Positions 10,725 to 55,825 of a stretch of DNA of 64,000 nt are shown piece by piece (the stretch's first letter is position 1; each line of letters starts with the position of its first letter). The notes under the pieces are model-generated. The model saw only the letters and a list, made by a program, of their open reading frames with translations, did no database searches and was not told the origin of the DNA. This DNA comes from Allolobophora icterica (lineage: Eukaryota; Annelida; Clitellata; Crassiclitellata; Lumbricidae). The translations under genes were made by a program, and so were the position numbers. The stretch spans positions 25,280,036 through 25,344,035 of the forward strand of contig OY744609.1 of assembly GCA_963556255.1 (NCBI GenBank), given 5' to 3'.

Positions 10725-13302
10725 GGCTTTCACCTCCGGACGTTTCAACTCTGGATCAATCGCCTCTACGGGTTTTCACGTCCGGACGTTTCACCTCCGG
10801 ACCATTCACCTCTAGGGGCTTTCACCTATAGGGGCTTTCACCTATAGGGGCTTTCACCTATAGGGGCTTTCACCCATAGAGGCTTTCATTTCTAGGGGGT
10901 TTCCACCTACTCTCTCATCCTATTATATAGTTTGCCAGCTCTGTGTCGATAAACACTCTGGAAAGTTTGGATTGCAAACGGCCGCTGCGCTGTCGAATGT
11001 ATGGAATGTGCTGACAGGCCGCTGGCCGATCCGCCGGCCTTAGGGAGTGTTACTGGGTCTGGCCCGAAATTGAACAGGCCCCACGAACACTGGAACTAGA
11101 CAGATAGACGTACAGACGCACAGCCAGACAGACGGACGGTCAGACAGACAGACGGAATCAGTGAAGGAGGGAGGGAGAGGACAGAGCTAGTGCGCGAGGG
11201 AGGGAGGCAGATAGACGTACAGACGCACAGCTATATTACGGACGGACGGACGGTGTCTCTGCCCAGGGGCGTCTATCCCCCCCTAAGTCATTGGAGCAAC
11301 GTCCTTTTCCCCCTCTTCTTCCCCCTCCCAGTGCCTTCCGCCCTAAAATGGTGAAACACACACTGACAGATCTTCCCCTATTTCTTGGATGGAGCATTTG
11401 CTCCAAGGTTTCTATGGTGTAGACGCCCCTGTCCTCTGCCTCATTCCCTACCTCACTACCTCTCCCTATCCACACGATCTGACGGAAGTAAGTAACGCTC
11501 ACATTTTACAAAATAGACAGTTGATGTAAATGTTACTGTCATTGGATCAGGAAAAGCCCAAACTGGCCTGTCGGCTATTAGCAGCTACTACGAGCGCTTT
11601 TGACGCTCGCTTCAGGATGGTAAACTGTTCGAAGAATGGCGAGTTCATTGGTAGCCGATGCTGCAAAGTTCACATGCTCGAAGTATAGAACCCGTTAAGA
11701 CTGCATCCGCGATATTCTTGGCAACAGATGTTGTGTTGCTGGAATCTTTATAGTCCAGATCTGAAGGCCTATACAGGAGAAGCACGTGGAAATGTCTGAC
11801 TGTTCGTTTTTAGTTGTTACCATGCAACCACGTGGCGGTCGCCATGCACTGATGATTGTAGGTGTTTTAAAATCATCCTAAACGACAAAATTCCACTCAG
11901 TTTGACCTAACAGGCATCACAGAAGCGGACTCGAACGCAATATACCCACGAATAGACGAGAGACATTTGCAAGCAAACGGCTTAAAATCCACTAAAACTG
12001 AACATTCTTTCCGAACGAAATATGGCGGCGACCGGATGTTCCGCCAGCGAGATCCCGTACTCGTCAAACCGTCATGTATGACGAGTAAATATTCTACTAT
12101 TCATATAAAACGTGAGTGACTGTAATTGAGAAATGGAACTAAAATAAGAAGATAGGGAAAGCCTATTGAACCTAGCTAAGTAGGCACATGATACCTGATA
12201 ATGGCAGATGAAAACGGCAGATGAATTCGCGCGTCAGTGACTATAATTAACCACAATTAACCGTACGCGCATAATAAATGGAAATCAGATAAGAAGATAT
12301 GGGAAGCCTCTGGAACCTAGCTAAGTATAGGCACCTGATAACCCAAAAATGGCAGAGAAAAACGTCAAACAGAAAGAAGTGTATCTGCAAGCAACATCTG
12401 GGCTGAAAGTGTTCCCAGAAAATCTTATCGTCAGCTGATGGACAGTCATCCGCGTTGTAACTGCCAGTTATGGAGGCACTGAAGTTTGACATATTTGAAA
12501 GCAATCGCCCATCTTTCTCATGATGGCCTTTGTTAAGTCGACACTATAAGGGGCCGTCCATATATTACGTACGCAAAAATTCGGGAAAATTGGACCCCCC
12601 TCCCCCCCCCCCTGTACGCAAGCGTACTTTCTTCCGCACCCCCCCCTGCGTACGTACGCTTGACGCACACCCCTCCCCCCGAGAAGACCAGCCGCAGAAA
12701 GTGTCTCTCTGCACTTTAGGCCAGATTGAAGGATGAGTGAGGGCCAATATAGACAAATTATTGGTGTCTCGTTCACAGCACAGAATAACTTCACACTGGC
12801 TTTTATATAATGTAATAAAATGCCATCGGACGACTATAGGACAATACAGAGTTATAAATAGGCTAATGTGGACGTCATAATTCGAATTTATTTGCGTACG
12901 TACACATTTCGGCCACCCCCCCCCTCCCCCCCGTACGCACCCGTACGCAAAATCGCCAAAATCTTACCCCCCTCCCCCCCTCTTTGCGTACGTAATATAT
13001 GGACGGCCCCTAAGAAATCAACTTAATTACGTTAGTGAACGGTATGGACCTGCTAGTTGATAAGTTTGACACTAAGCAATCAACTTAATTACGCAATACG
13101 CAGTGATTAATGCCTGGCTTTGTCTATTTATGACATGATAATTAGTTGCATAGGTTGTAAGTTGTCTATGTTGTCTATGTTTCGTTTTCAGTGTCGTGGA
13201 AAAAATACAACAAACCTCATCGAAACGTCTCATTTTAGATTTGGGTGTGAAAACCCCTATAGGTGAAAGTCTCTAGAGGTGAATGGTCCGGAGGTGAAAG
13301 CC
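10725..13302 (+). mobile_element. Non-autonomous element with minisatellite inverted ends
   Basis: The left end starts GGCTTTCACCTCCGGA and the right end is TCCGGAGGTGAAAGCC, its inverse. Both ends carry tandem 17-18-bp units of the type CTTTCACCTATAGGGG (about six on the left, two or three on the right, inverted). CATA flanks both sides (10721-10724 and 13303-13306), a possible 4-bp target duplication. The 2.6-kb interior has no open frame of note and holds a nested MITE. The design recalls foldback elements with repeat-built inverted ends. The family is not recognised. Confidence 0.6.
12550..13010 (+). mobile_element. PIF/Harbinger-like MITE, 461 bp
   Basis: The ends GGGGCCGTCCATATATTACG and its complement CGTAATATATGGACGGCCCC are perfect inverted repeats of at least 20 bp. 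They are flanked by TAA on both sides (12547-12549 and 13011-13013), which fits the TWA target of PIF/Harbinger. The sub-terminal parts carry long C runs and CGTACGC words. A second, truncated copy lies in a GOT1 intron at 53711-54062. It has no coding capacity. Confidence 0.8.
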
Positions 13303-26033: not shown

Positions 26034-26279
26034 ATCTACACATTCGGATCAGATATTATTTACATTTTCATGAACAGGTTAATTTACAAATTAAAAACAG
26101 ATTGGATCATATTAATTAGGCCATGCACCTTCACTTAAACATTGATTCACAGTTTAATAACAATTTAGTTAATTGATTTTATATTATCGCTTGTTTTGGC
26201 CTCTTCCGTCGTACCTGAGCTTACAGATGTATATTTAATGAATATAATCTATGTCGCAACTTGACTTTCCGGGTAACTG

Positions 26280-26285
26280 ATGATA

Positions 26286-26368
<83 letters not shown>

Positions 26369-26577: not shown

Positions 26578-26899
26578 ATTCAGAGGATTTGTATAGCGCC
26601 CCTTCAAGAATTCTACTCAGAGGCGCTCCCGATCCAGTCCCGTCGAGAAAAACAGACTTTCGGACAAAATACACTGTATATTCAGTTGTTTCTCAACGCA
26701 CATTTTCTAGTAATCTAATGTCGCACTTGCGTAGATCAGCTAGGTGGTCATACAAGCAGTGGTGGACTGGCCATTGTGCCCATGTGCCATGGGCCATGGC
26801 ACATGGGCACAATGGGCACAACCGCTGCTGTACAATACATGTACCATGAGCCATGGCACATGGGCCCCTATGGTAGAAAGGATTTAATTATACGTCAAT
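26578..26899 (+). repeat. Dispersed repeat plus GCCCATGTGCCATGGGCC palindrome
   Basis: TATAGCGCC..TTCTACTCAGAGGCGCTCCCGA (26593-26635) repeats the word at 17510-17550. At 26760-26875, CATGTGCCATGGGCCATGGCACATG forms a near-perfect palindrome. This is the left flank of the large element. Confidence 0.55.
26894..26899 (+). repeat. 6-bp target-site duplication (left copy, GTCAAT)
   Basis: GTCAAT abuts the left end of the large palindromic element. The identical hexamer abuts the right end at 39262-39267. Confidence 0.85.
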
Positions 26900-26914
26900 A
26901 GTAGGTTATAAAGG

Positions 26915-27105
26915 GGTGATACGACTTCACACCCCCACGCACCACCCTCGGCCGGTTCTACTTCAGTCACGTGACTGAAGTTGTAGCTGTGGAGTGGTAG
27001 CGCTAGTACGTCACTAGCGGTACCACTCCACAGCTAGAACTTCAGTCACGTGACTGAATTAGAACCCGCTGAGGGTGGTGCGTGGGGGTGTGAAGTCGTA
27101 TCACC
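26915..27105 (+). repeat. 191-bp terminal palindrome, left end
   Basis: It starts GGTGATACGACTTCACACCC and ends in its complement. Each half contains its own palindrome CTTCAGTCACGTGACTGAAG, and the centre has a third inverted pair (AGCTGTGGAGTGGTA.GC / GC.TACCACTCCACAGCT). It could fold into a branched hairpin. It begins 15 bp inside the element end. Confidence 0.95.
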
Positions 27106-27549
27106 TCTGGAGTAGTAGCTCAAGCGTGACGTTGGCGGAGCCTAAGATGTCCTCTTCTGTGACAAACTATTTTGATTGGCTAAGGCTTTGGCCATTCTAT
27201 TTCATTGACATGTGCACATTTAAGCTATGACCAATATACTAAACTGGTTATTCCAATGTTATACTCCATAAAGAGAATATTTACATGTGACAATTCTTGC
27301 CCAATTCGCACTGAATTTGAAACATGTCCACTCAATCCATTAATTTCTTTAGCGCCATATTAATATCTCCCAATTTTAAACGCTATTTAAACTGACACTT
27401 TAAGAACAGATTCTTTTAATAATATTTCTTTTGCATCAAATATTTGGATGTACTATTGCAATGATGTATGCATATATGCTCACCCCACCCTCCCATCACC
27501 CCAACCTTTACCCAGCAAGGGGGCGGAGGGGAGGGGAGCGCTTTTGGCA

Positions 27550-28505
27550 TTACAATTACATTATATTTTAAAATTCTAATTTAACTTAAAAGTGTATTTT
27601 CAATATATTGAAAGTAAGTAGGCAAGTTTACAAATATGGCAGATCTGAATATGTCATAGACTAGGAAAACCGATGCATTCAGCTGTTTGCCAATGTTTAC
27701 ACACTGTGACATTTATTAGACTATATAGCGACTAAATATTTGTTAAGAAATACCAAACCAATAACTAAAAGAGAAGGAAGAACTCTAAAACTGTTAAGTA
27801 ATGGAAGATGAGGATGTCAGAAAAGGTACATTTTAGTCGAATTCGATATTACAGAAATGTAATTATGGAAATGGGAATCAAATGTGTCAATCTAGCATAG
27901 GCCTACTCGGTCGTTTGCATTCAAAATTCGTGTAAACGAATTAAAATTCACACAAGAGTTGTTTCTCTTGCTTAGCCGAAGACGTAAAATCAACATTATC
28001 CCAAGGAGAGGGAGGTAGAGGGATAGGAGGGAACGTGACATTATATTTTAAATATAATATAAAAAAAACAATTTTACCCATGTGTAACATATTTGCACAG
28101 CCAATGACATATTTTCAATATGTGAAAAGTTGTGTCTACATACGCAAGTAAGCAAGTTTACAAATATGGTAGGTCTGACTAAACCATTACGCAAAGACTA
28201 GGAAAATCGTTGTGTTCGCCTGTATTGCAATGTGTACACTGCTATTTATTAGAATAGTGAGTAAATATTTGCTAAGAAACTGATAAATAAAGAAAAGAAA
28301 GAACTCTAAAACCGGCAGGTAAAGAAGAATGAAGATGTCAGAAAAGTCACATCTTAATCGAATTTGACATTACAGAAATGTAGGCCTAATTATGGCTGTG
28401 ACACTCTAACATACTCAGTCGAGTTTGCATTCAAAATTTATGTAAACTAATTAAAATCCACTGCAGAGTTGTTTCTCTTGCTTAGCTGAAGACGTAAAAT
28501 CACAA
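27550..28505 (+). repeat. Direct duplication of a ~470-bp block inside the arm
   Basis: Two tandem diverged copies begin near 27550 and 28030. Both contain GCAAGTTTACAAATATGG, GAACTCTAAAAC, ATTACAGAAATGTA and GTTGTTTCTCTTGCTTAGC in the same order. The pair is mirrored in the right arm at about 37660-38620. Confidence 0.88.
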
Positions 28506-30629
28506 CATTTCAATGGCAAACTCACAGGCGACCAAAGTTAGCAAGAGTGCGTATGAGAATTTGCGTACGAGCTTAACAGTCCATTAGTTTGCAAGCTACA
28601 TGACAAAGCGCTCAATCTGCAAATTGTTCTAGCAATCACTTTGATTGCCCGAGGATTTGCAATTATATACACGACTAGGCGTCAAAATTTCAAAGTGGCT
28701 GAATCAATTTACCCGTCTGTTAAACGCGCTAACTAACAATTGGCTCGACCAAGCTGTCATATACACAGAGGTCTTTGCAATTAAGCTGTACACGTACAAG
28801 ACGCGTCAACTGTGTGAATAACAATTACAGACCCTCAGGTGGCAAATATCGCTCTTTCAAAACAAACGAATCAACTGCACTCAGAGGCAGTCATATGAGC
28901 CAATGTTTATTCCAATGTGCAAATCTACGTGCACTAAAGTGGTCAGCCCTTTGGCAAATTCAATAGAGTTATATCGGCAGGAATAATCAAAAGAAACTTG
29001 AAACAACTACATTATTATACACCTACACGCCTACGGTACGTATTACAGGTATAAGTCTACATTGGGTCAAGTTCATACGCAAAGGATTTTATTTCACTTT
29101 AATATATTAAAATACATGTGTTGGAAAAGCGATATTATAAAACCTTGCAGGTTAATAAGAAACATGCAGAGTTGCACAACATTGATAAGTTTATGTGTAA
29201 GTAGGATTAGGCCTATATGTTTGCATGTGAAGAAAAACAAATGGTGGGTAAATTCTAGCACTTGTCAGTGCGCTAAATAAACGGTTTCTCATCCTTCACA
29301 CGTGGGCGATACACAGCCAATTGGTCTCTAACACAGATGAGTTTATATGCCTAACAGGTGTATTGGCATTGCATAGCAATCTTATAACTTGTTGAAAAGA
29401 CCTATGGAAGTTTAAATAGGAAGCGTATGCCTAAGTCTTTTACTTTGCACGGCACGATGTTAGAATGTTAACTCTTAGAATGAAACATCTCATAGTTCGA
29501 AGGTTTGATTACTAAATTTCTATCTTGTAAATTCCTAAAATGCATGAAAAGTCGCCACGCACAGTAAGCTGTAAACTTTTAGACTTGTGCGATTTAAGCT
29601 AAACTTAGAATCATTAGGCTTTCAAAACATTTGGAATTGTGTAGGAGACGTTTAGATTCGTAAATGTATTGGACGATGTTAACAACTCTTAGGGTTAAGC
29701 CTTACATGATTTGTTGCTTTTGCATATAAAAATTCTGTCTCGTATATTATTACTAAGATGCGTGAAATGTCAACTTGTGCAACTTTCAACGTTTAGTTTG
29801 CCAAGTAGTGCAGAATGTATGCTAAACTTATAATCTTTAAGCCTTAGATCTTGAGCAGCAAACTTGTGGTTTTCTCGATTGTTAACAAGATTGAGACGAA
29901 GGTTTGTATAGTAAAAGTCCACCGTGCTACTTTGAAGACATACGAATGGTAGTTTTAATGCTAAAAATGAAAAGTTTAAGTTGAGGAGACGTATGCGATG
30001 ACAACTTGTGTACTTGAACTACAACTGTTATCATAAGCTTACATTTTTTTAAGATTGTAAGACTGACGAGACAAAGGTTTTTAAGTTGAAAAGATGGTTC
30101 ATATGATGAAAGTTTGGCTTTTGAAAGATGTAAAGACCAAGGTTTTGTGGTAAAATTGCTACTCATATGTTGGAAATTGGGTTGAGTGGAGATTCCTACA
30201 TTCCTATGTTAAACTTATCCATGTTAGATTGCTAAAGTCACATGCTGTGATGATAATTTAAAATGTTTTTACATTCAGAAAACACGCGGGACATAGGATT
30301 CTGCAGTAAAATACAAAGCTTAAGTTGACAAGCTGCGTCGTGTGATGATGGCTTGCTTACTAAGATGTGGAACTTTATGTAGAAAGATGAATGATTACAT
30401 AACAAGCTGACTTCTTTTAGGTTTGCACATGCAGATGAACTGAGAGATTACTTATCAAACTTATGATTTGTAGGATGCATGGAGAAATGTTATGAAGTAC
30501 TTTAAACTAAAATTGCAACTTTATGCACAAAGATGTGCAGTATGAAGTTTTCCACGACCGACTAAGGCAAGAACGTGTGGAATGAGAGTTTACTTAGCAA
30601 ACTTATTATTTGTAAGCTGTATGCAGAAA

Positions 30630-31079
30630 GAAAGGTCCGCAAAGGTTCACCAGTCACTCTGGTACAGAGTAAAGCAGGGAGGCGACCTGACCGACGACTC
30701 TGATGAGCGTAGACTCGGATCCGACCTGGGCTGGTGAACCAAAGTCCTCCGTGCCCACCTTCTCGTGGTGCGGACCGTTAGTACCCTTCCTAGGAAGTAC
30801 TCTTCCTAGGAGGGGGAACGAACGGGCACGGCAGGCAAAACCAGGGGAAGGCAATGGCAAACCACCCCTGTTAATCATGCCAAGAAAATCGTCATGCCAC
30901 ACACCAAACCACGCCGATGGTCGCGGATGGAGGGACTCCCAGGCCGGAGCGCTGAGGTGGGACTCCCAGGCCAAAGCGCGACTCAAGGGCTACTGGGAGA
31001 AGTAGCAAGACGGCAACGGAGACTGTGTGGCATGACGATCGCTAGGGCTCCTAGAGCCGACGGCACAAAGAGAAAAGAG
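30630..31079 (+). mobile_element. Retroposon-like insertion in the left arm, 450 bp
   Basis: A GC-richer block interrupts the AT-rich arm and is flanked by a 9-bp direct repeat ATGCAGAAA (30621-30629 and 31080-31088). It contains GGGGAAGGCAATGGCAAACC, a word resembling the 3' regions of some RTE-type LINEs and SINEs. It is absent from the right arm, so it entered after, or escaped, arm homogenisation. The class is tentative. Confidence 0.65.
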
Positions 31080-31964
31080 ATGCAGAAATAGTATGAAGGA
31101 TTTTAAAGTAAAATTGCAACATCATGTACAAAGATTTGTGGCATGAAGGTTTGCATGACAAACTAAGATGTCTTAGAATGCAAATACTTGTGGTATGAGA
31201 GTTTACTTAGAAAACTTGTGAATTTGAGAATGTAGACACATATGATATGAGTGACACTTGTGTCTTTTAGGTTGTATGGTGAAATGTCATGAAGGTTGAT
31301 ATGATAAGGGTTCCACATTTACATTGTACATGCGCTTGCGATGTGCGTTTGTATGCCAAAAATTACAAATTTCTACCTTTCAACGGGTTAAAAGTAATAT
31401 AAATATTATGGATTAGCCAACTCTTTCACAAATTTTGAGTTTGAGAATGCTAAAATATGAAAACTTAGGTTAAAGGATGTGTAGTTCAATGACATTGGAT
31501 AGTAAGTAAGATGTTTGGAGGTTTCATTATGGTCGAATGTTTGAAAGTAAGACTAAATTTCAAACTGTGCGTGTGTTTGAACGGTTTGGGTTATGTAGAC
31601 ACCTATTGTGGAGCGTGTGTATATTTGGATTTGTGAAAATGTGATGATTTTGAATGAAAGGAGCTGTAAAAGTTGCAGTCTTGTAGTGTTTGAGTCATGT
31701 AGAGGTTCAAGAATTTAGTTCTGGTGTATGGAAATGTGATGTTTTCAAATAAAGTACACATGCAAAGCACTTAAAATGGTATATTTTGGAACGTTCAAAG
31801 AATGGAACTGACACGTGTAGTAGCTGTAGCAGCAGAGGTCTGAAGCAAGTGTTTGCAAAGTATGTAAAATGTTTTCCATTGAAATGTACTATATTTTCAC
31901 TGAGAGGATATGACACACATATGATGTAAAATTCATAGCAACATAACAGTTGCACAAATGTTAA

Positions 31965-32475
31965 ATTCGATAAAGTTCAAGACATGACATCAATTTATTC
32001 AAGTTTTTGCATAGATCTCACAAGTACAAGTCCATTTTTAAACAGTCAAACTTGAAAACATTGTTAGAGAAAAGCGAAACTGTCTAAATGTGTCCTGTAC
32101 ACATGAATAAAAATTGTAAAGTTGTCAGTTTACAAACTTTGCACTCTAATATGATTAGAGAAACATGAAAATCCAATACATTTTCAGTTCATTTCAGTTT
32201 TGGATCATGTGCTCCTGTGCTTTTAATGGAACACTGTTGATCTGATTATTGCTTGGTTTTGATGTATGATCGGTTGATGCATGCGTGCATTAGAAACCAG
32301 CGCAGTAGAAGTTACTAATTACTTACACACTACATTAGACAGTTACAAGTCCATTTAACTTGAAAACACTTTTAGAGAAAAGCAAGAGTCTAAATGCACA
32401 CTTTACATACAAATGCAAAAGTCGCAGATGTGCATTTTTTCCTAAATGTGTGCATTTCCAAAGAAGAGTTTTAGC
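31965..32475 (+). repeat. Inner inverted repeat, left copy
   Basis: Collinear in inverse orientation with about 33050-33545. Examples are ATTGCTTGGTTTTGATG..ATCGGTTGATG and GAAGTTACTAATTACTTAC on this side and their complements on the other. The copies are clearly more diverged than the outer arms, with several indels. Confidence 0.85.
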
Positions 32476-32677
32476 CATGACAACAGCTTCAACAATTTCT
32501 GTAGAGCATTTAGCAATATTAACCAATTAAGAATTTCGAAAGCAAACTAGTCAATGGATGAAAGGTTAACAAGCACCTGAATTTCTTAAAAGTTGACATT
32601 CTTAATGCCAGTTGTCATTGTTGCTTGAGTAGTCGAGATAATCATACACGCCACCCGTTAAATTACTTAAAACTAAA

Positions 32678-33037
32678 GTGAGAATGTGTTTTATGGAAGA
32701 AAAGCAAGAAACCAGTTGTGTGCAGAACTGTGAACCAGATTGTACAAGTCGCGAAAATATGCTGAAAGAATGTGAACCAACAGATGGAAATGTCGAAAAC
32801 CCTGACAAATGTCATACTTCAAACTCCTCTCATTCTTATCTTCTCGCGCGACTTAAGACTGAGAATGAAAAATTGCAAACTTCATTGATCTGCAGATGTT
32901 GTCGTTCTACTCAAGTACAAACGCTTACACTACCATGCTGTCACATAGTCTGCTGTGAGACATGTGCCGATACTTCTAATGATTGTCCTTTGTGCAGAGC
33001 TAGAATCCTTGGAACAGTTAAGATATATCTAGCCTAA
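32678..33037 (+). CDS. Small RING-finger protein, IAP-type (119 aa)
   Basis: The only convincing gene in the giant element. The C-terminal ~50 residues form a C3HC4 RING: Cys72, Cys75, Cys87, His89, Cys93, Cys96, Cys103 and Cys106, with the sequence LPCCHIVCCETCADTSNDCP and the ending RARILGTVKIYLA. Spacing and the G-T-V-x-x-(F/Y)-L ending match the C-terminal RING of inhibitor-of-apoptosis proteins, which acts as an E3 ubiquitin ligase and dimerises through that tail. No BIR domain is present. The first 50 residues are Cys-rich without a known motif, and residues 54-70 (YLLARLKTENEKLQTSL) look like a short coiled coil. All eight zinc ligands are intact. It is flanked by the inner inverted repeats. 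Its role may be to modulate host ubiquitination or apoptosis; that is inference. No introns are apparent. Confidence 0.8.
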   Translation: MRMCFMEEKQETSCVQNCEPDCTSRENMLKECEPTDGNVENPDKCHTSNSSHSYLLARLKTENEKLQTSLICRCCRSTQVQTLTLPCCHIVCCETCADTSNDCPLCRARILGTVKIYLA

Positions 33038-33049
33038 AAGTCTTCATTG

Positions 33050-33545
33050 GAAGTGTACAACTATGTGAGAAAATGTACACCTCTAACTTTTGCATTTGTA
33101 TGTTAAGTGCGCATTTAGAATGTTTTGCTTTTCTCTAGCAGTGTTTTCAAGTGAAATGGGCTCATAACTGTCTAATGTAGTATGTAAGTAATTAGTAACT
33201 TCTATTGCGCCGATGTATCATTTACTTAGACATCAACCGATTGCGCATCAAAACCAAGCAGTAATAAGGTCAGAAGGAAAGCCCAACAGCATACACTCCA
33301 AAACTGAAATGAAGTGAAAATGTATTGGATTCTTCATGTTTCTCTAATCATGAGTGCAAAGTTTGTAAACTCACAACTTTGCAATTTTAATTTGTATGTG
33401 AAGTGAACTTTGAACAAGCATTCGCTGCAGCTGATTTCGCTTTCTACTAACAATGGTTTCAAGCTTGGTTGCTTAAAGATGGACTTGTAACTGTGAGATG
33501 TATGCAAAACGTGAATAAATTGATGTCTTGAACTTTATGAAACTT
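33050..33545 (-). repeat. Inner inverted repeat, right copy
   Basis: Inverse partner of 31965-32475, starting about 13 bp after the stop codon of the RING gene. Confidence 0.85.
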
Positions 33546-33779
33546 AATATGAAGCGATGAATTTAACATCATATGTGTAGCATTTCCCCTCTGTGAAAAT
33601 ATAGTTTGATAGTTCACACAGTTCAAACTTTGGTGACTTGGCATAGAAGTTGTGAAACTGCATTACTAACATAGCACAACTTGAAACCTGGAACTCGTGT
33701 CTTTGTTTTTGCAATACTCCTGAGAATGAAAATATGTAAAGTACCATGCATAAGGAAGTTGCTTCTCTCTCTAGCTAAG

Positions 33780-35013
33780 TTTCACATCTCTAGCTAAGGC
33801 ATGACAATTTCATCATCCTAACCCTCCAAAAATGTAACAGTTTACAATGAAAAACTCACATTTTCCAACAAATTATACCTGCAACACTTTGCTAGAACTA
33901 GCCTGCACACATGTTCCATAGTCTGAATCTCCCAAAACTGTATCATTTCACACACTTTGCAAATGTCTTCTACTCAAAAACGTCTGTTTTCAATGCAAGT
34001 TACAACCTTATGCTTACTTCCCTCCAACTAGAACTGCCATACAATTGGACTTTGACATTTTGCATGTCTTTTCCAACAAAATTCAAAGTTATACTTCACT
34101 TCATATGACCTAAACTCATGCTTGAACCATGTTACACATCATCCGAACTCTACCAAAATATATCATTTTAAGTTCCTTTCATGTGTATAATTCACCTCTA
34201 CGAAAAACCTTTAGCTAGAAATACTATGCCAAGCATTTCCATCATTTGAATTCTCTAAAATGTAACATGCTTTACATTGTAAACGTTCTTTTCCACAAAT
34301 TGCAGACGCATGTTTCTTACTTCTCCATTTAGAACTATGATACCCAACCAGTTCCATCACCTGAAATCATCAAAACGATGCACATTTTCGCATGCTTTTT
34401 ACATAATTTTAGTCAAAAACTTTAAGTTTACACAAACTAAAACTGCATGTTTCTTCCTTCAACGATCATGTACAACAGTCTCATCATTTGAAATCTGCAA
34501 AACAAGCACATTTTCAAATGCTTTAACATAATTTTAGTCAAAAAACTTTAAGTTTACAAAAACTACAACCGCATGTTTCTTACTTCATGCACAACAGTTT
34601 CATCATTTGAAATCTGCAAAACAAGCCCATTTTCAAATGCTTTTCACATTTCAGTCAAACACTCTAAGTTTCCACAAACTGAAACCACCTGTTTCTTACT
34701 TCACCTATCATGCGCAGCAGATTCTTCATTTGAAATCTACAAAAACATGTTTTTTACATCTCAGTCTAAAACTTTAAGTTTTTACAAACTGCAACCAAAT
34801 GTTTCTTACTTCACCTAACATGTACACTGCACAGCAATTTCTTCATTGAAATCTACAAAACATTTACACTTTTGCATGTTTTTAACATTTCAGTCAAAAG
34901 CTTTAAATTTCCACAAATTGCACGTTCATGCATTACACACCACACAGCTAGAATTATCATACGCATGAGTTTCATCATCTAAAGTGTCCAAAAATGTATC
35001 ATTTACAGTCTTT
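33780..35013 (+). repeat. Degenerate ~105-bp tandem repeats in the spacer
   Basis: Successive units share TGTTTCTTACTTCA, (T/A)CATCATTTGAAATCTGCAAAAC and CAGTCAAAA.CTTTAAGTTT (clear near 34310, 34450, 34570, 34680 and 34790). This block occurs only on the right side of the core and makes the centre asymmetric. Confidence 0.8.
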
Positions 35014-38000
35014 GTACATTTCAATGGAAAACATTTTACATACTTTGCAAACACTTGCTTCCGACCTCTGCTGCTGCAGCTACTACATGTGTCAGTTCCA
35101 TTCTTTGAACGTTCCAAAATATACCATTTTAAGTGCTTTGCATGTGTACTTTATTTGAAAACATCACATTTCCACACACTAGAACTAAATTCTTGAACCT
35201 CTACATGACTCAAACACTACAAGACTGCAACTTTTACAGCTCCTTTCATTCAAAATCATCACATTTTCACAAATCCAAATATACACACGCTCCACAATAG
35301 GTGTCTACATAACCCAAACCGTTCAAACACACGCACAGCTTGAAATTTAGTCTTATTTTCAAGCATTCGACCATAATGAAACCTCCAAACATCTTACTTA
35401 CCATCCAATGTCATTGAACTACACATCCTTTAACCTAAGTTTTCAAATTTTAGCATTCTCAAACTCAAAATTTGTGAAGAGTTGGCTAATCCATAATATA
35501 TACATTACTTTTACCCGTTGAAAGGCAGAAATTTGTAATTTTTGGCATACAAACGCTCATCGCAAGCGCATGTACAATGTAAATGTGGAACCTTTATCAT
35601 ATCAGCCTTCATGACGTGGAAAACTTCATACTGCACATCTTTGTGCATAAAGTTGCAATTTTAGTTTAAAATACTTCATAACATTTCTCCATGCATCCTA
35701 CAAATCATAAGTTTGATAAGTAATCTCTCAGTTCATCTGCATGTGCAAACCTAAAAGAAGTCAGCTTGTTATGTAATCATTCATCTTTCTACATAAAGTT
35801 CCACATCTTAGTAAGCAAGCCATCATCACACGACGCAGCTTGTCAACTTAAGCTTTGTATTTTACTGCAGAATCCTATGTCCCGCGTGTTTTCTGAATGT
35901 AAAAACATTTTAAATTATCATCACAGCATGTGACTTTAGCAATCTAACATGGATAAGTTTAACATAGGAATGTAGGAATCTCCACTCAACCCAATTTCCA
36001 ACATATGAGTAGCAATTTTACCACAAAACCTTGGTCTTTACATCTTTCAAAAGCCAAACTTTCATCATATGAACCATCTTTTCAACTTAAAAACCTTTGT
36101 CTCGTCAGTCTTACAATCTTAAAAAATGTAAGCTTATGATAACAGTTGTAGTTCAAGTACACAAGTTGTCATCGCATACGTCTCCTCAACTTAAACTTTT
36201 CATTTTTAGCATTAAAACTACCATTCGTATGTCTTCAAAGTAGCACGGTGGACTTTTACTATACAAACCTTCGTCTCAATCTTGTTAACAATCGAGAAAA
36301 CCACAAGTTTGCTGCTCAAGATCTAAGGCTTAAAGATTATAAGTTTAGCATACATTCTGCACTACTTGGCAAACTAAACGTTGAAAGTTGCACAAGTTGA
36401 CATTTCACGCATCTTAGTAATAATATACGAGACAGAATTTTTATATGCAAAAGCAACAAATCATGTAAGGCTTAACCCTAAGAGTTGTTAACATCGTCCA
36501 ATACATTTACGAATCTAAACGTCTCCTACACAATTCCAAATGTTTTGAAAGCCTAATGATTCTAAGTTTAGCTTAAATCGCACAAGTCTAAAAGTTTACA
36601 GCTTACTGTGCGTGGCGACTTTTCATGCATTTTAGGAATTTACAAGATAGAAATTTAGTAATCAAACCTTCGAACTATGAGATGTTTCATTCTAAGAGTT
36701 AACATTCTAACATCGTGCCGTGCAAAGTAAAAGACTTAGGCATACGCTTCCTATTTAAACTTCCATAGGTCTTTTCAACAAGTTATAAGATTGCTATGCA
36801 ATGCCAATACACCTGTTAGGCATATAAACTCATCTGTGTTAGAGACCAATTGGCTGTGTATCGCCCACGTGTGAAGGATGAGAAACCGTTTATTTAGCGC
36901 ACTGACAAGTGCTAGAATTTACCCACCATTTGTTTTTCTTCACATGCAAACATATAGGCCTAATCCTACTTACACATAAACTTATCAATGTTGTGCAACT
37001 CTGCATGTTTCTTATTAACCTGCAAGGTTTTATAATATCGCTTTTCCAACACATGTATTTTAATATATTAAAGTGAAATAAAATCCTTTGCGTATGAACT
37101 TGACCCAATGTAGACTTATACCTGTAATACGTACCGTAGGCGTGTAGGTGTATAATAATGTAGTTGTTTCAAGTTTCTTTTGATTATTCCTGCCGATATA
37201 ACTCTATTGAATTTGCCAAAGGGCTGACCACTTTAGTGCACGTAGATTTGCACATTGGAATAAACATTGGCTCATATGACTGCCTCTGAGTGCAGTTGAT
37301 TCGTTTGTTTTGAAAGAGCGATATTTGCCACCTGAGGGTCTGTAATTGTTATTCACACAGTTGACGCGTCTTGTACGTGTACAGCTTAATTGCAAAGACC
37401 TCTGTGTATATGACAGCTTGGTCGAGCCAATTGTTAGTTAGCGCGTTTAACAGACGGGTAAATTGATTCAGCCACTTTGAAATTTTGACGCCTAGTCGTG
37501 TATATAATTGCAAATCCTCGGGCAATCAAAGTGATTGCTAGAACATTGAGCGCTTTGTCATGTAGCTTGCAAACTAATGGACTGTTAAGCTCGTACGCAA
37601 ATTCTCATACGCACTCTTGCTAACTTTGGTCGCCTGTGAGTTTGCCATTGAAATGTTGTGATTTTACGTCTTCAGCTAAGCAAGAGAAACAACTCTGCAG
37701 TGGATTTTAATTAGTTTACATAAATTTTGAATGCAAACTCGACTGAGTATGTTAGAGTGTCACAGCCATAATTAGGCCTACATTTCTGTAATGTCAAATT
37801 CGATTAAGATGTGACTTTTCTGACATCTTCATTCTTCTTTACCTGCCGGTTTTAGAGTTCTTTCTTTTCTTTATTTATCAGTTTCTTAGCAAATATTTAC
37901 TCACTATTCTAATAAATAGCAGTGTACACATTGCAATACAGGCGAACACAACGATTTTCCTAGTCTTTGCGTAATGGTTTAGTCAGACCTACCATATTTG

Positions 38001-39261
38001 TAAACTTGCTTACTTGCGTATGTAGACACAACTTTTCACATATTGAAAATATGTCATTGGCTGTGCAAATATGTTACACATGGGTAAAATTGTTTTTTTT
38101 ATATTATATTTAAAATATAATGTCACGTTCCCTCCTATCCCTCTACCTCCCTCTCCTTGGGATAATGTTGATTTTACGTCTTCGGCTAAGCAAGAGAAAC
38201 AACTCTTGTGTGAATTTTAATTCGTTTACACGAATTTTGAATGCAAACGACCGAGTAGGCCTATGCTAGATTGACACATTTGATTCCCATTTCCATAATT
38301 ACATTTCTGTAATATCGAATTCGACTAAAATGTACCTTTTCTGACATCCTCATCTTCCATTACTTAACAGTTTTAGAGTTCTTCCTTCTCTTTTAGTTAT
38401 TGGTTTGGTATTTCTTAACAAATATTTAGTCGCTATATAGTCTAATAAATGTCACAGTGTGTAAACATTGGCAAACAGCTGAATGCATCGGTTTTCCTAG
38501 TCTATGACATATTCAGATCTGCCATATTTGTAAACTTGCCTACTTACTTTCAATATATTGAAAATACACTTTTAAGTTAAATTAGAATTTTAAAATATAA
38601 TGTAATTGTAATGCCAAAAGCGCTCCCCTCCCCTCCGCCCCCTTGCTGGGTAAAGGTTGGGGTGATGGGAGGGTGGGGTGAGCATATATGCATACATCAT
38701 TGCAATAGTACATCCAAATATTTGATGCAAAAGAAATATTATTAAAAGAATCTGTTCTTAAAGTGTCAGTTTAAATAGCGTTTAAAATTGGGAGATATTA
38801 ATATGGCGCTAAAGAAATTAATGGATTGAGTGGACATGTTTCAAATTCAGTGCGAATTGGGCAAGAATTGTCACATGTAAATATTCTCTTTATGGAGTAT
38901 AACATTGGAATAACCAGTTTAGTATATTGGTCATAGCTTAAATGTGCACATGTCAATGAAATAGAATGGCCAAAGCCTTAGCCAATCAAAATAGTTTGTC
39001 ACAGAAGAGGACATCTTAGGCTCCGCCAACGTCACGCTTGAGCTACTACTCCAGAGGTGATACGACTTCACACCCCCACGCACCACCCTCAGCGGGTTCT
39101 AATTCAGTCACGTGACTGAAGTTCTAGCTGTGGAGTGGTACCGCTAGTGACGTACTAGCGCTACCACTCCACAGCTACAACTTCAGTCACGTGACTGAAG
39201 TAGAACCGGCCGAGGGTGGTGCGTGGGGGTGTGAAGTCGTATCACCCCTTTATAACCTACT
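35014..39261 (-). repeat. Right inverted arm of the giant element
   Basis: Complement of the left arm, 4248 bp. It lacks the 730-bp block of the left arm and the 9 bp near 28630. Otherwise I see only scattered single-base differences. Confidence 0.93.
39056..39246 (+). repeat. 191-bp terminal palindrome, right end
   Basis: Mirror copy of 26915-27105 with the same nested palindromes. Confidence 0.95.
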
Positions 39262-39267
39262 GTCAAT
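39262..39267 (+). repeat. 6-bp target-site duplication (right copy, GTCAAT)
   Basis: Identical to 26894-26899. The sequences beyond the two hexamers differ, as expected for an insertion. Confidence 0.85.
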
Positions 39268-39439: not shown

Positions 39440-40025
39440 TATAGCTAGCCACAGAGGCAGACACAGAGGCAGACACAGAGGCAGACACAAAGACAGAGAC
39501 ACAGGCCGATACAGACACACATGTAGACAAAGAGACAAACACACAGACAGATACAGAGACATACACATAGGCAGGCATAGAGACAGACACATAGGCAGAT
39601 ACAGAGACAGACACACACAGAGATACAGAGACAGACACACAGCCAGACACAAAGGCAGACACAGAGGGAGACACAGAGACAGACACAAAGACAGACACAA
39701 AGACATACATAAAGACAGACAAACAGGCAGACACAGAGATAGACACACATGTAGATAAAGAGACAGACACATAGACAGACATAGAGACAGACACATAGGC
39801 AGATACAGAGACAGACACACAGACAGGTACAGAGACATACACATAGGCATACACAGAGGCATACACATAGGCAGACACACAGACAGACATAGAGACACAC
39901 ACGCAGAAACAGAGAAAGACACATAGACAGACACAAAGACACACACAGAGACACAGAGACAGACACATAGACAGCCGCAGATACAGATACAGAAGCAAAC
40001 ACACAGATAGACACACAGGTAGGCC
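39440..40025 (+). repeat. Degenerate (ACAGACAC/AGAGGC)n minisatellite
   Basis: About 580 bp built from ACAGACACA, GAGGCA and CATAGGC words. All minus-strand frames are open and Cys/Val/Ser-rich, which is a shadow of the repeat. Confidence 0.93.

Positions 40026-43349: not shown

Positions 43350-55825
<12,476 letters not shown>

What the first reader, a model, noticed from the sequence alone, without database searches (positions are those of the whole stretch)
26894..39267. 12.36-kb near-perfect palindromic transposon with Polinton-like termini carrying only a RING gene
The element begins AGTAGG, ends CCTACT and is flanked by identical GTCAAT hexamers. About 4.25 kb of each arm is an inverted copy of the other with very few differences, so roughly 70-75% of the element is one giant hairpin. 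5'-AGT ends and 6-bp duplications are hallmarks of Polinton/Maverick elements, but those normally have inverted repeats of up to about 1 kb and encode polymerase, integrase, ATPase and capsid genes. None is visible here. This could be a new non-autonomous foldback lineage mobilised by a Polinton, or an unrelated family.
Basis: partly seen in the sequence, partly recalled or inferred. Interest (0 to 1): 0.92.

Follow-up and report, generated by a model that had tools for sequence, protein, structure and literature searches.

The report
Giant mirror-image Polinton-like satellite transposon
This is one copy of a family of roughly 12-kb jumping DNA elements whose two halves are near-perfect mirror images, here around a single RING-finger gene, and they are likely copied and inserted by borrowed machinery of virus-like Polintons, with a predicted fold-back step that would keep the two halves identical.

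Summary
Confirmed and extended. The element spans 26900-39261, flanked by GTCAAT. Outer arms (3.66 kb) differ by one substitution and two small gaps; inner arms are 97%, the innermost 77%. It is not a one-off: the host assembly (1.12 Gb) holds 13 complete elements with its two end types, ends inverted and 10.1-13.6 kb apart; 12 of 12 testable have perfect 6-bp duplications. The RING gene is IAP-type and under purifying selection; 118 near-full-length RING loci were listed. In this copy the two arms share its private substitutions (58 in both arms, 0 in one, outer 3.6 kb), so one arm has apparently been re-made from the other. I favour copy-back (panhandle) synthesis during protein-primed replication by a Polinton. 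Three coding Polintons in the same genome are themselves palindromes with different fold-back centres and their own target duplications, so that route seems to operate here. Against a simple helper story: no homology to the sampled Polintons beyond the end motif, and those make 5-bp, not 6-bp, duplications. Trans-mobilisation is inferred, not shown. Ten literature searches listed no palindromic Polinton or satellite of Polintons.

The parts
26894..26899 (.). left target-site duplication GTCAAT
   Evidence: read directly; 6-bp duplications also perfect in 11 other copies
26900..39261 (.). whole palindromic element, AGTAGG...CCTACT, 12,362 bp
26900..30556 (+). outer left arm, 1 mismatch against the right arm
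35615..39261 (-). outer right arm
26912..27108 (.). terminal fold-back duplication (about 195 bp, 93%), present in both arms of this copy, absent from C2 and C14
39053..39249 (.). mirror copy of the terminal fold-back duplication in the right arm
30557..31285 (+). 729 bp present only in the left arm (arm sequence plus SINE-like insert); the right arm lacks the matching stretch
30630..31079 (.). 450-bp SINE-like insert (by look; not matched to a family) with 9-bp repeats ATGCAGAAA (30621-30629, 31080-31088); the 8 other fetched elements lack it
31286..31889 (+). inner left arm, 97% (16 mismatches)
35014..35615 (-). inner right arm, 97%
31888..32474 (+). innermost, unhomogenised arm remnant upstream of RING (77%)
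33034..33605 (-). innermost arm remnant downstream of RING (77%)
32684..33037 (+). RING gene, 117 aa, IAP-type C-terminal RING, under purifying selection
34349..34865 (.). tandem repeats of 110-119 bp in the unpaired part of the right half
39262..39267 (.). right target-site duplication GTCAAT
   Evidence: read directly

Best explanation
The element is one copy of a family of palindromic transposons with Polinton-type ends and 6-bp target duplications but without detectable polymerase, integrase or capsid genes, likely replicated and inserted in trans by a Polinton and predicted to renew its mirror symmetry by copy-back (panhandle) DNA synthesis. Shown: a multi-copy family with AGT/ACT ends and 6-bp duplications; private mutations and rearrangements of a copy that appear in both of its arms; a selected IAP-type RING gene at the centre of this copy; and coding Polintons in the same genome that have separately become palindromes through fold-back junctions. 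Inferred: the ends act as protein-primed origins; the displaced single strand folds on itself, so each arm serves as template for the other and the strand is already mostly double-stranded without separate second-strand synthesis; a Polinton integrase inserts the linear product. The RING protein is predicted to be an E3 ligase payload (dampening cell death or acting on the helper). It is probably not needed for spread, because one family member and many palindromic relatives lack it.
For: (1) Exact end 17/19-mers give 4 + 9 complete elements, ends inverted and 10.1-13.6 kb apart, plus one lone end; 12 of 12 testable have perfect 6-bp duplications. (2) The two arms of a copy agree over the outer 5 kb at 99.4-100% in 7 of 8 copies (C8b 96.1%, where 5 kb reaches the unpaired centre; its arms by blastn 99.7%), while W, C11 and C2 or C14 agree with each other at only 95.4-96.9%. 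(3) Private substitutions in both arms versus one arm: W 58 vs 0, C11 95 vs 6, C2 3 vs 0, C14 6 vs 0, C4 18 vs 0, C1 13 vs 5, C8b 20 vs 6; private indel runs: W 13 vs 4, C11 11 vs 0, C2 1 vs 0, C14 2 vs 0, C4 4 vs 2, C8b 6 vs 5, C1 1 vs 2. (4) W and C11 each carry their own terminal fold-back duplication, in both arms, absent from C2 and C14. (5) In W homogenisation stops at the 729-bp heterology: 1/3,647 mismatches outside, 16/602 inside, Fisher P 3e-13. (6) Three coding Polintons are palindromes with different centres and their own 5-bp duplications: C5 (23-nt loop), C1 (12-nt loop, centre piece without N), C3 (about 586-bp spacer); C1 and C3 were sampled at their ends, at 300 bases per arm and at the centre, not read whole. 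(7) 52 pPolB places are listed, 42 with frames of at least 1,200 aa, and the sampled ordinary Polinton has a double-jelly-roll capsid gene. (8) RING: intact in 8 of 9 fetched elements; W and C2 differ by 7 nt with no amino-acid change; dN/dS 0.24-0.42 for the more diverged pairs; 118 loci listed.
Against: No coding Polinton was found with the same ends: exact end searches hit only the palindromic family and its one-armed remnant. The arms show no blastn or tblastn similarity to the sampled Polintons; the best end match, 13 of 17 bases to C5, is weak (P 0.003 beyond AGTAG, best of 4 comparisons). The four sampled coding Polintons show 5-bp duplications (two of them could be read as 6 bp with unequal ends), the palindromic family 6-bp, so their integrase may not be the one used. 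Some sister copies are nearly as alike as arms are (C4-C7b 99.9%, C2-C14 99.8%, C1-C4 99.0-99.1%), so only W, C11, the C2/C14 pair as a unit and the comparison of subfamilies inform on co-evolution; indels in C1 and C8b do not favour it clearly. C11's 6 mismatches all lie in its outer 2.5 kb, and C1 and C8b also have a few in the outermost kilobase, not what purely end-started copying predicts. The C5 palindrome has a 200-N run in its left arm, beginning near the point where C1 turns back, and its junction is unique in the genome. None of the 118 RING loci lies near a listed pPolB (nearest 187.6 kb; that pPolB list is partial), so the RING has no visible origin in a Polinton.
Confidence: 0.57

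Rival explanations
1. The palindrome is an ordinary transposon with very long inverted repeats, and the arms are kept identical after insertion by gene conversion or cruciform repair in the chromosome, as in other genomic palindromes.
For: In W, C2, C14, C1 and C7b identity falls towards the centre, and in W it stops at a heterology, which conversion tracts could also give; a few one-arm mismatches lie near the outer ends of C11, C1 and C8b.
Against: Two of three palindromic coding Polintons have short fold-back loops, and all three their own target duplications, which points to symmetry made before insertion; C2, C14 and C4 have 0-1 mismatches in the outer 5 kb with intact 6-bp duplications.
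Confidence: 0.23
2. It is an unrelated cut-and-paste foldback family (Galileo- or Foldback-like) whose transposase is encoded elsewhere; the AGT ends are convergent.
For: No Polinton gene and no homology to the sampled Polintons; 5-bp versus 6-bp duplications; internally repeated stretches.
Against: The AGTAGT...ACTACT ends and 6-bp duplications match those printed for vertebrate Mavericks (PMC8097293, passages); palindromic coding Polintons occur in the same genome.
Confidence: 0.15
3. Assembly artefact: collapsed or mirrored contigs.
For: Contig C183 mirrors its flanks as well, a likely artefact; C5 has a 200-N run near its centre.
Against: 12 copies have different flanks on each side and matching 6-bp duplications; arms of W differ by a real one-arm insert and small indels; the C1 palindromic Polinton centre piece has no N.
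Confidence: 0.02

Closest known systems
Polinton/Maverick (Polintovirus, adintovirus) elements
   Same: AGT...ACT ends and 6-bp target duplications (as printed in PMC8097293, passages); similar overall size
   Different: No pPolB, integrase, ATPase or capsid gene detected; inverted repeats of 3.7-6.4 kb instead of hundreds of bases (229 bp in the ordinary Polinton sampled here)
Symmetric (palindromic) adenovirus recombinants and palindromic deletion derivatives of protein-primed linear plasmids (recalled, not read here)
   Same: Two identical ends of a protein-primed linear replicon joined through an inverted centre
   Different: Those are recalled as laboratory or episomal molecules; this is an integrated family with many copies
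Self-complementary AAV genomes (recalled)
   Same: One strand folds into a near-complete duplex, so no separate second-strand synthesis would be needed
   Different: Rolling-hairpin parvovirus with a Rep protein; engineered, not a transposon
Foldback / Galileo elements
   Same: Very long, internally repetitive inverted repeats (PMC3573991, start of abstract seen)
   Different: Different duplication length (recalled) and other ends (recalled)
IAP (BIRC) family RING domains
   Same: C-terminal RING, E 1e-10 to cIAP1 (PDB 6hpr), including the GTV tail of the alignment
   Different: 117-123 aa with no BIR domain found by Pfam

Membership tests
Polinton/Maverick | AGT...ACT terminal motif | tested here: met
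   13 complete elements; motif from PMC8097293 passages
Polinton/Maverick | 6-bp target duplication | tested here: met
   12 of 12 testable copies; but four sampled coding Polintons of this genome show 5 bp
Polinton/Maverick | protein-primed DNA polymerase B | tested here: not met
   longest frame in any of the 9 fetched elements is 168 aa; tblastn with the C5 pPolB negative on all 9; none of the 52 listed pPolB hits lies inside the 13 elements
Polinton/Maverick | rve integrase, A32-type ATPase, capsid proteins | tested here: not met
   tblastn with C5 integrase and ATPase and with the double-jelly-roll protein and five other right-half proteins of the ordinary C3 Polinton negative on all 9 fetched elements
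Polinton/Maverick | inverted repeats of about 0.1-1 kb (recalled; 229 bp in the Polinton sampled here) | tested here: not met
   arms 3.7-6.4 kb; 229 bp
Non-autonomous Polinton derivative (satellite) | shares terminal sequence with a coding Polinton | tested here: inconclusive
   13 of 17 bases with C5, P 0.003 beyond AGTAG, best of 4 comparisons; no exact match; two coding Polintons compared
Non-autonomous Polinton derivative (satellite) | moved by Polinton proteins | not testable with these tools
   needs biochemistry or extrachromosomal DNA
Foldback/Galileo | long internally repetitive inverted repeats | tested here: met
   arms 3.7-6.4 kb; repeated stretches inside arms
Foldback/Galileo | P-superfamily transposase and its target-duplication length | not tested
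   no search of the genome for such a transposase was made
IAP-type RING | C3HC4 RING with IAP C-terminal tail | tested here: met
   PF13920 E 2.4e-8; cIAP1, cIAP2, XIAP and ML-IAP RING chains E 1e-10 to 1e-6

The most novel reading that the evidence does not exclude
A class of self-complementary satellites of Polintons: germ-line elements, probably hundreds of copies in one eukaryotic genome, whose single strand is its own duplex, so that they skip second-strand synthesis, out-replicate their helper like natural defective-interfering genomes, and in part carry an IAP-type RING gene as their only selected cargo. Coding Polintons in the same genome are caught turning into such palindromes by copy-back.
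Probability: 0.4. Interest if true: 0.92.

Novelty: new variant of a known kind. Interest (0 to 1): 0.82.

Why it matters
How Polintons replicate and whether they have parasites of their own is, to my knowledge, not settled. A family of 12-kb palindromes with Polinton-type ends, next to coding Polintons turned into palindromes by fold-back junctions, gives sequence evidence for copy-back synthesis and suggests satellites that depend on Polintons. Arms that are re-copied at each cycle would act like LTR pairs, so each copy could be dated from its own arms. A selected IAP-type RING gene that spreads this way is a candidate for cell-death control by a satellite.

Tried and rejected
Rejected: assembly artefact for the window copy (duplications and arm differences). 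C183 was fetched and its arms measured, but I set it aside for target duplications and as evidence on private variants (335 in both arms, 1 in one), because its flanks are mirrored too. C7b was not given to (8 of the 9 fetched elements were used, in two groups of four). In one search the window copy was taken with its two hexamers (corrected from then on).

Led nowhere: Rfam and ARAGORN gave no RNA gene in the window; PHROGs gave no match for the RING protein; the phage collection has no DNA match to the outer arm; the viral contigs hold no relative of the RING protein. The global protein search gave three relatives at 54-68% identity on contigs of 656-1,777 bases, too short for context. A second pPolB type (C4:19457700) gave no inverted repeat between the two pieces fetched. 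The C5 fold-back junction occurs once in the genome. The tested RING of the 58% group (C6:58410391) showed only short inverted matches across the gene and no facing partner of its upstream piece among the 40 scored hits, so a perfect palindrome there is not shown. The host species was not identified. Of ten literature searches, some with capped lists, none listed a palindromic Polinton or a satellite of Polintons by title or by the start of the abstract shown, for five spellings of non-autonomous or defective Polinton/Maverick, found 0 papers. Preprints outside PubMed Central and most subscription journals are not in that library. Papers opened: PMC8097293, PMC2836005, PMC6431247 and PMC1864894, passages only. 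The SYREC search returned unrelated papers, so that analogy is recalled.
Full report
Observation. The element lies at 26900-39261 with GTCAAT on both sides; the finding's interval includes the two duplications. The outer arms, 26900-30556 and 35615-39261, pair with one substitution and gaps of 9 and 1 bases; the next 0.6 kb pairs at 97%, the innermost 0.6 kb at 77%. Five ORFs of 80 aa or more lie inside it. One, 32684-33037 in the unpaired centre, is a RING gene; the other four have no Pfam match over a cut-off.

A family, not a single palindrome. The assembly that holds the window has 1,117,693,669 bases in 328 contigs. The exact 17-mer AGTAGGTTATAAAGGGG occurs 9 times: four inverted pairs plus one lone end. 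The 19-mer AGTAGTAAGTAATATGRGG occurs exactly 18 times, as nine inverted pairs; the 15 further two-mismatch hits are unpaired and fit the background (33 hits in all; the reversed control has 31). So 13 complete elements were counted, 10.1-13.6 kb long. Target duplications were read for 12: GTCAAT (window), GTTATG, AGGAGG, TACACA, CATGAA, CACGTG, CCTGTT, CCTGTT, CTCCAG, AGCTTT, AGTGAA, CTTGTG; all are perfect. The thirteenth, C183, has mirrored flanks and could not be tested. The lone end on C7 belongs to a remnant in which only one arm was found. Four of the 13 (C2:25186741, C3:4262631, C3:9348633, C4:14776032) were seen at their ends only.

The nine fetched elements (window included) are all giant palindromes. 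Arms reach 6.4 kb in C11 and 6.0 kb in C4, leaving about 0.6-0.7 kb of unique centre that holds the RING gene. Over the outer 5 kb of eight copies, the two arms of a copy agree at 99.4-100% (C8b 96.1%, since 5 kb reaches its unpaired centre). Between copies of the AGTAGG type W, C11 and C2 or C14 agree at 95.4-96.9%, but C2 and C14 at 99.8%; within the AGTAGT type C1, C4 and C7b agree at 99.0-99.9% and C8b with them at 94-97%; between the two types agreement is about 86-91%. So the contrast between arms and copies is strong for W, C11, the C2/C14 pair and between types, and weak among the young C1, C4 and C7b.

The arms evolve together. For the outer 3.6-4.0 kb, private substitutions were split into those in both arms and those in one arm: W 58 and 0; C11 95 and 6; C2 3 and 0; C14 6 and 0; C1 13 and 5; C4 18 and 0; C8b 20 and 6. 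Private indel runs: W 13 and 4; C11 11 and 0; C2 1 and 0; C14 2 and 0; C4 4 and 2; C8b 6 and 5; C1 1 and 2 (C183, 335 and 1, is set aside; C7b was not included). W has a roughly 195-bp fold-back duplication at its very end and C11 a different one of about 91 bp; each is present in both arms of its own copy and absent from C2 and C14. In W, mismatches jump from 1 in 3,647 to 16 in 602 where the left arm carries 729 extra bases (Fisher P 3e-13). Part of that stretch is a 450-bp SINE-like insert with 9-bp repeats, absent from the eight other elements. In W, C2, C14, C1 and C7b identity drops near the centre; in C11 and C4 almost the whole arm is identical, and C11's 6 mismatches all lie in its outer 2.5 kb. 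The gradient is therefore not universal.

The RING gene. It matches PF13920 and IAP RINGs in the PDB (cIAP1, E 1e-10). It is intact in 8 of 9 fetched elements; C8b has none. W and C2 differ by 7 nucleotides with no amino-acid change; dN/dS among the more diverged pairs is 0.24-0.42, and random placement of the same number of changes gives as few amino-acid changes in at most 0.08% of 5,000 runs in each of four comparisons. A genome search scored 150 of 186 candidates; I listed 118 of them as full or near-full length (one starts at residue 11), 5 with one stop. The nearest of the 52 listed pPolB hits is 187.6 kb from any of the 118; that list is partial.

A wider group. A piece from beside a 58%-identical RING (C6:58410391) resembles the arms of W, C4 and C183, and the two flanks of that RING contain two short inverted matches to each other. 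Searching 650 bases of that flank gave 434 candidates, 40 scored; 32 of the 40 form 16 facing pairs with 1.2-3.4 kb between, 14 with equal bit scores, and there are no same-strand or back-to-back neighbours within 20 kb. The C6 locus itself has no facing partner among the 40. None of the 16 pairs has a scored RING hit between its arms; the one centre that I read is a 91.6% self-palindrome without a RING match. So palindromic relatives are numerous and the RING is probably not needed for spread. The ends of this wider group were not read.

Polintons in the same genome. pPolB rings at 52 listed places (91 of 1,541 candidates scored), 42 with open frames of 1,200 aa or more. An ordinary one (C3:95238389-95255910) has 229-bp inverted repeats, AGTAG...CTACT ends, a 5-bp duplication GCCTA and a double-jelly-roll capsid gene. 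Three others, found as facing pairs of the C5 left end among 40 scored of 581 candidates, are palindromes. C5:5765430-5783577 has 8.7-kb arms with one mismatch, both carrying the pPolB, integrase and ATPase frames; the sequence runs into a gene just before the place of the capsid gene and turns back after a 23-nt loop; duplication TTCCA; a 200-N run sits in the left arm, starting near the point where C1 turns, so the left half needs a check. C1:60202324-60219759 has pPolB on both sides (300 of 300 bases sampled) and a centre piece without N that turns at a different place with a 12-nt loop; duplication CCGCT. C3:8283433-8298035 agrees at 299 of 300 sampled bases, has a spacer of about 586 bp and duplication GGTAG. 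C1 and C3 were sampled, not read whole. The C5 junction is unique in the genome. Different junctions with separate duplications point to separate fold-back events, each followed by insertion. In C5 and the ordinary element the duplication could also be read as 6 bp with unequal element ends; in C1 and the palindromic C3 it cannot.

Mechanism. Polintons are thought to replicate as protein-primed linear DNA (established knowledge; PolB for replication and a DDE integrase for integration in PMC6431247, passages seen). If a nascent strand folds back, a molecule with the same end twice results, and the displaced strand of such a molecule is a duplex of several kb with a loop. Copying or repair inside that duplex makes both arms one lineage, which is what the private variants of W and C11 show. 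The ends and 6-bp duplications fit a Polinton-type integrase. Shown: family, ends, duplications, arm co-evolution, selection on RING, palindromic coding Polintons. Inferred: protein priming of this element, use of helper proteins, role of RING.

What speaks against it. No helper with the same ends was found; the arms have no similarity to the sampled Polintons; the sampled Polintons make 5-bp duplications, so the helper, if any, is probably another Polinton group. In-place gene conversion could also keep arms alike.

Verdict. The finding is real and larger than reported. It fails membership as a Polinton (no genes, oversized repeats) but most likely works as a Polinton satellite. I rate it a new variant of a known kind, with high interest because of the palindromic coding Polintons found beside it.

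Noticed in passing
G000:C5:5765430-5783577, C1:60202324-60219759, C3:8283433-8298035 (pieces L049-L051, L068-L071, L073-L078): Coding Polintons that are themselves palindromes, each with a different fold-back centre and its own 5-bp duplication.
   Followed up: partly
G000, 16 facing pairs such as C19:22238008-22241517 and C15:4258588-4261211: A larger group of palindromic relatives without a scored RING hit in the centre; 434 candidates, 40 scored.
   Followed up: partly
G000:C6:7348799-7350646 and C1:82913098-82915161: Two places with a diverging pair of RING genes about 1.1-1.4 kb apart, as if the palindrome had extended over the RING gene.
   Followed up: no
G000:C183 (36,101 bases): Short contig whose palindrome includes both flanks of the element; probably an assembly walk through the hairpin.
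   Followed up: partly
G000:C1:11.55-11.90 Mb: Cluster of RING matches at 41-44% identity, all on one strand; possibly host IAP/RING-like genes.
   Followed up: no
G000:C13:39422731 and 39449285: Two pPolB frames 26.5 kb apart on the same strand, perhaps neighbouring Polintons.
   Followed up: no
window 39450-40015 and 26278-26368: Simple-repeat arrays close to the element on both sides.
   Followed up: no
window 12549-12906 and 53713-54063: Another inverted pair in the window, 84% identical over about 360 bp; an interspersed repeat by the look of it.
   Followed up: no
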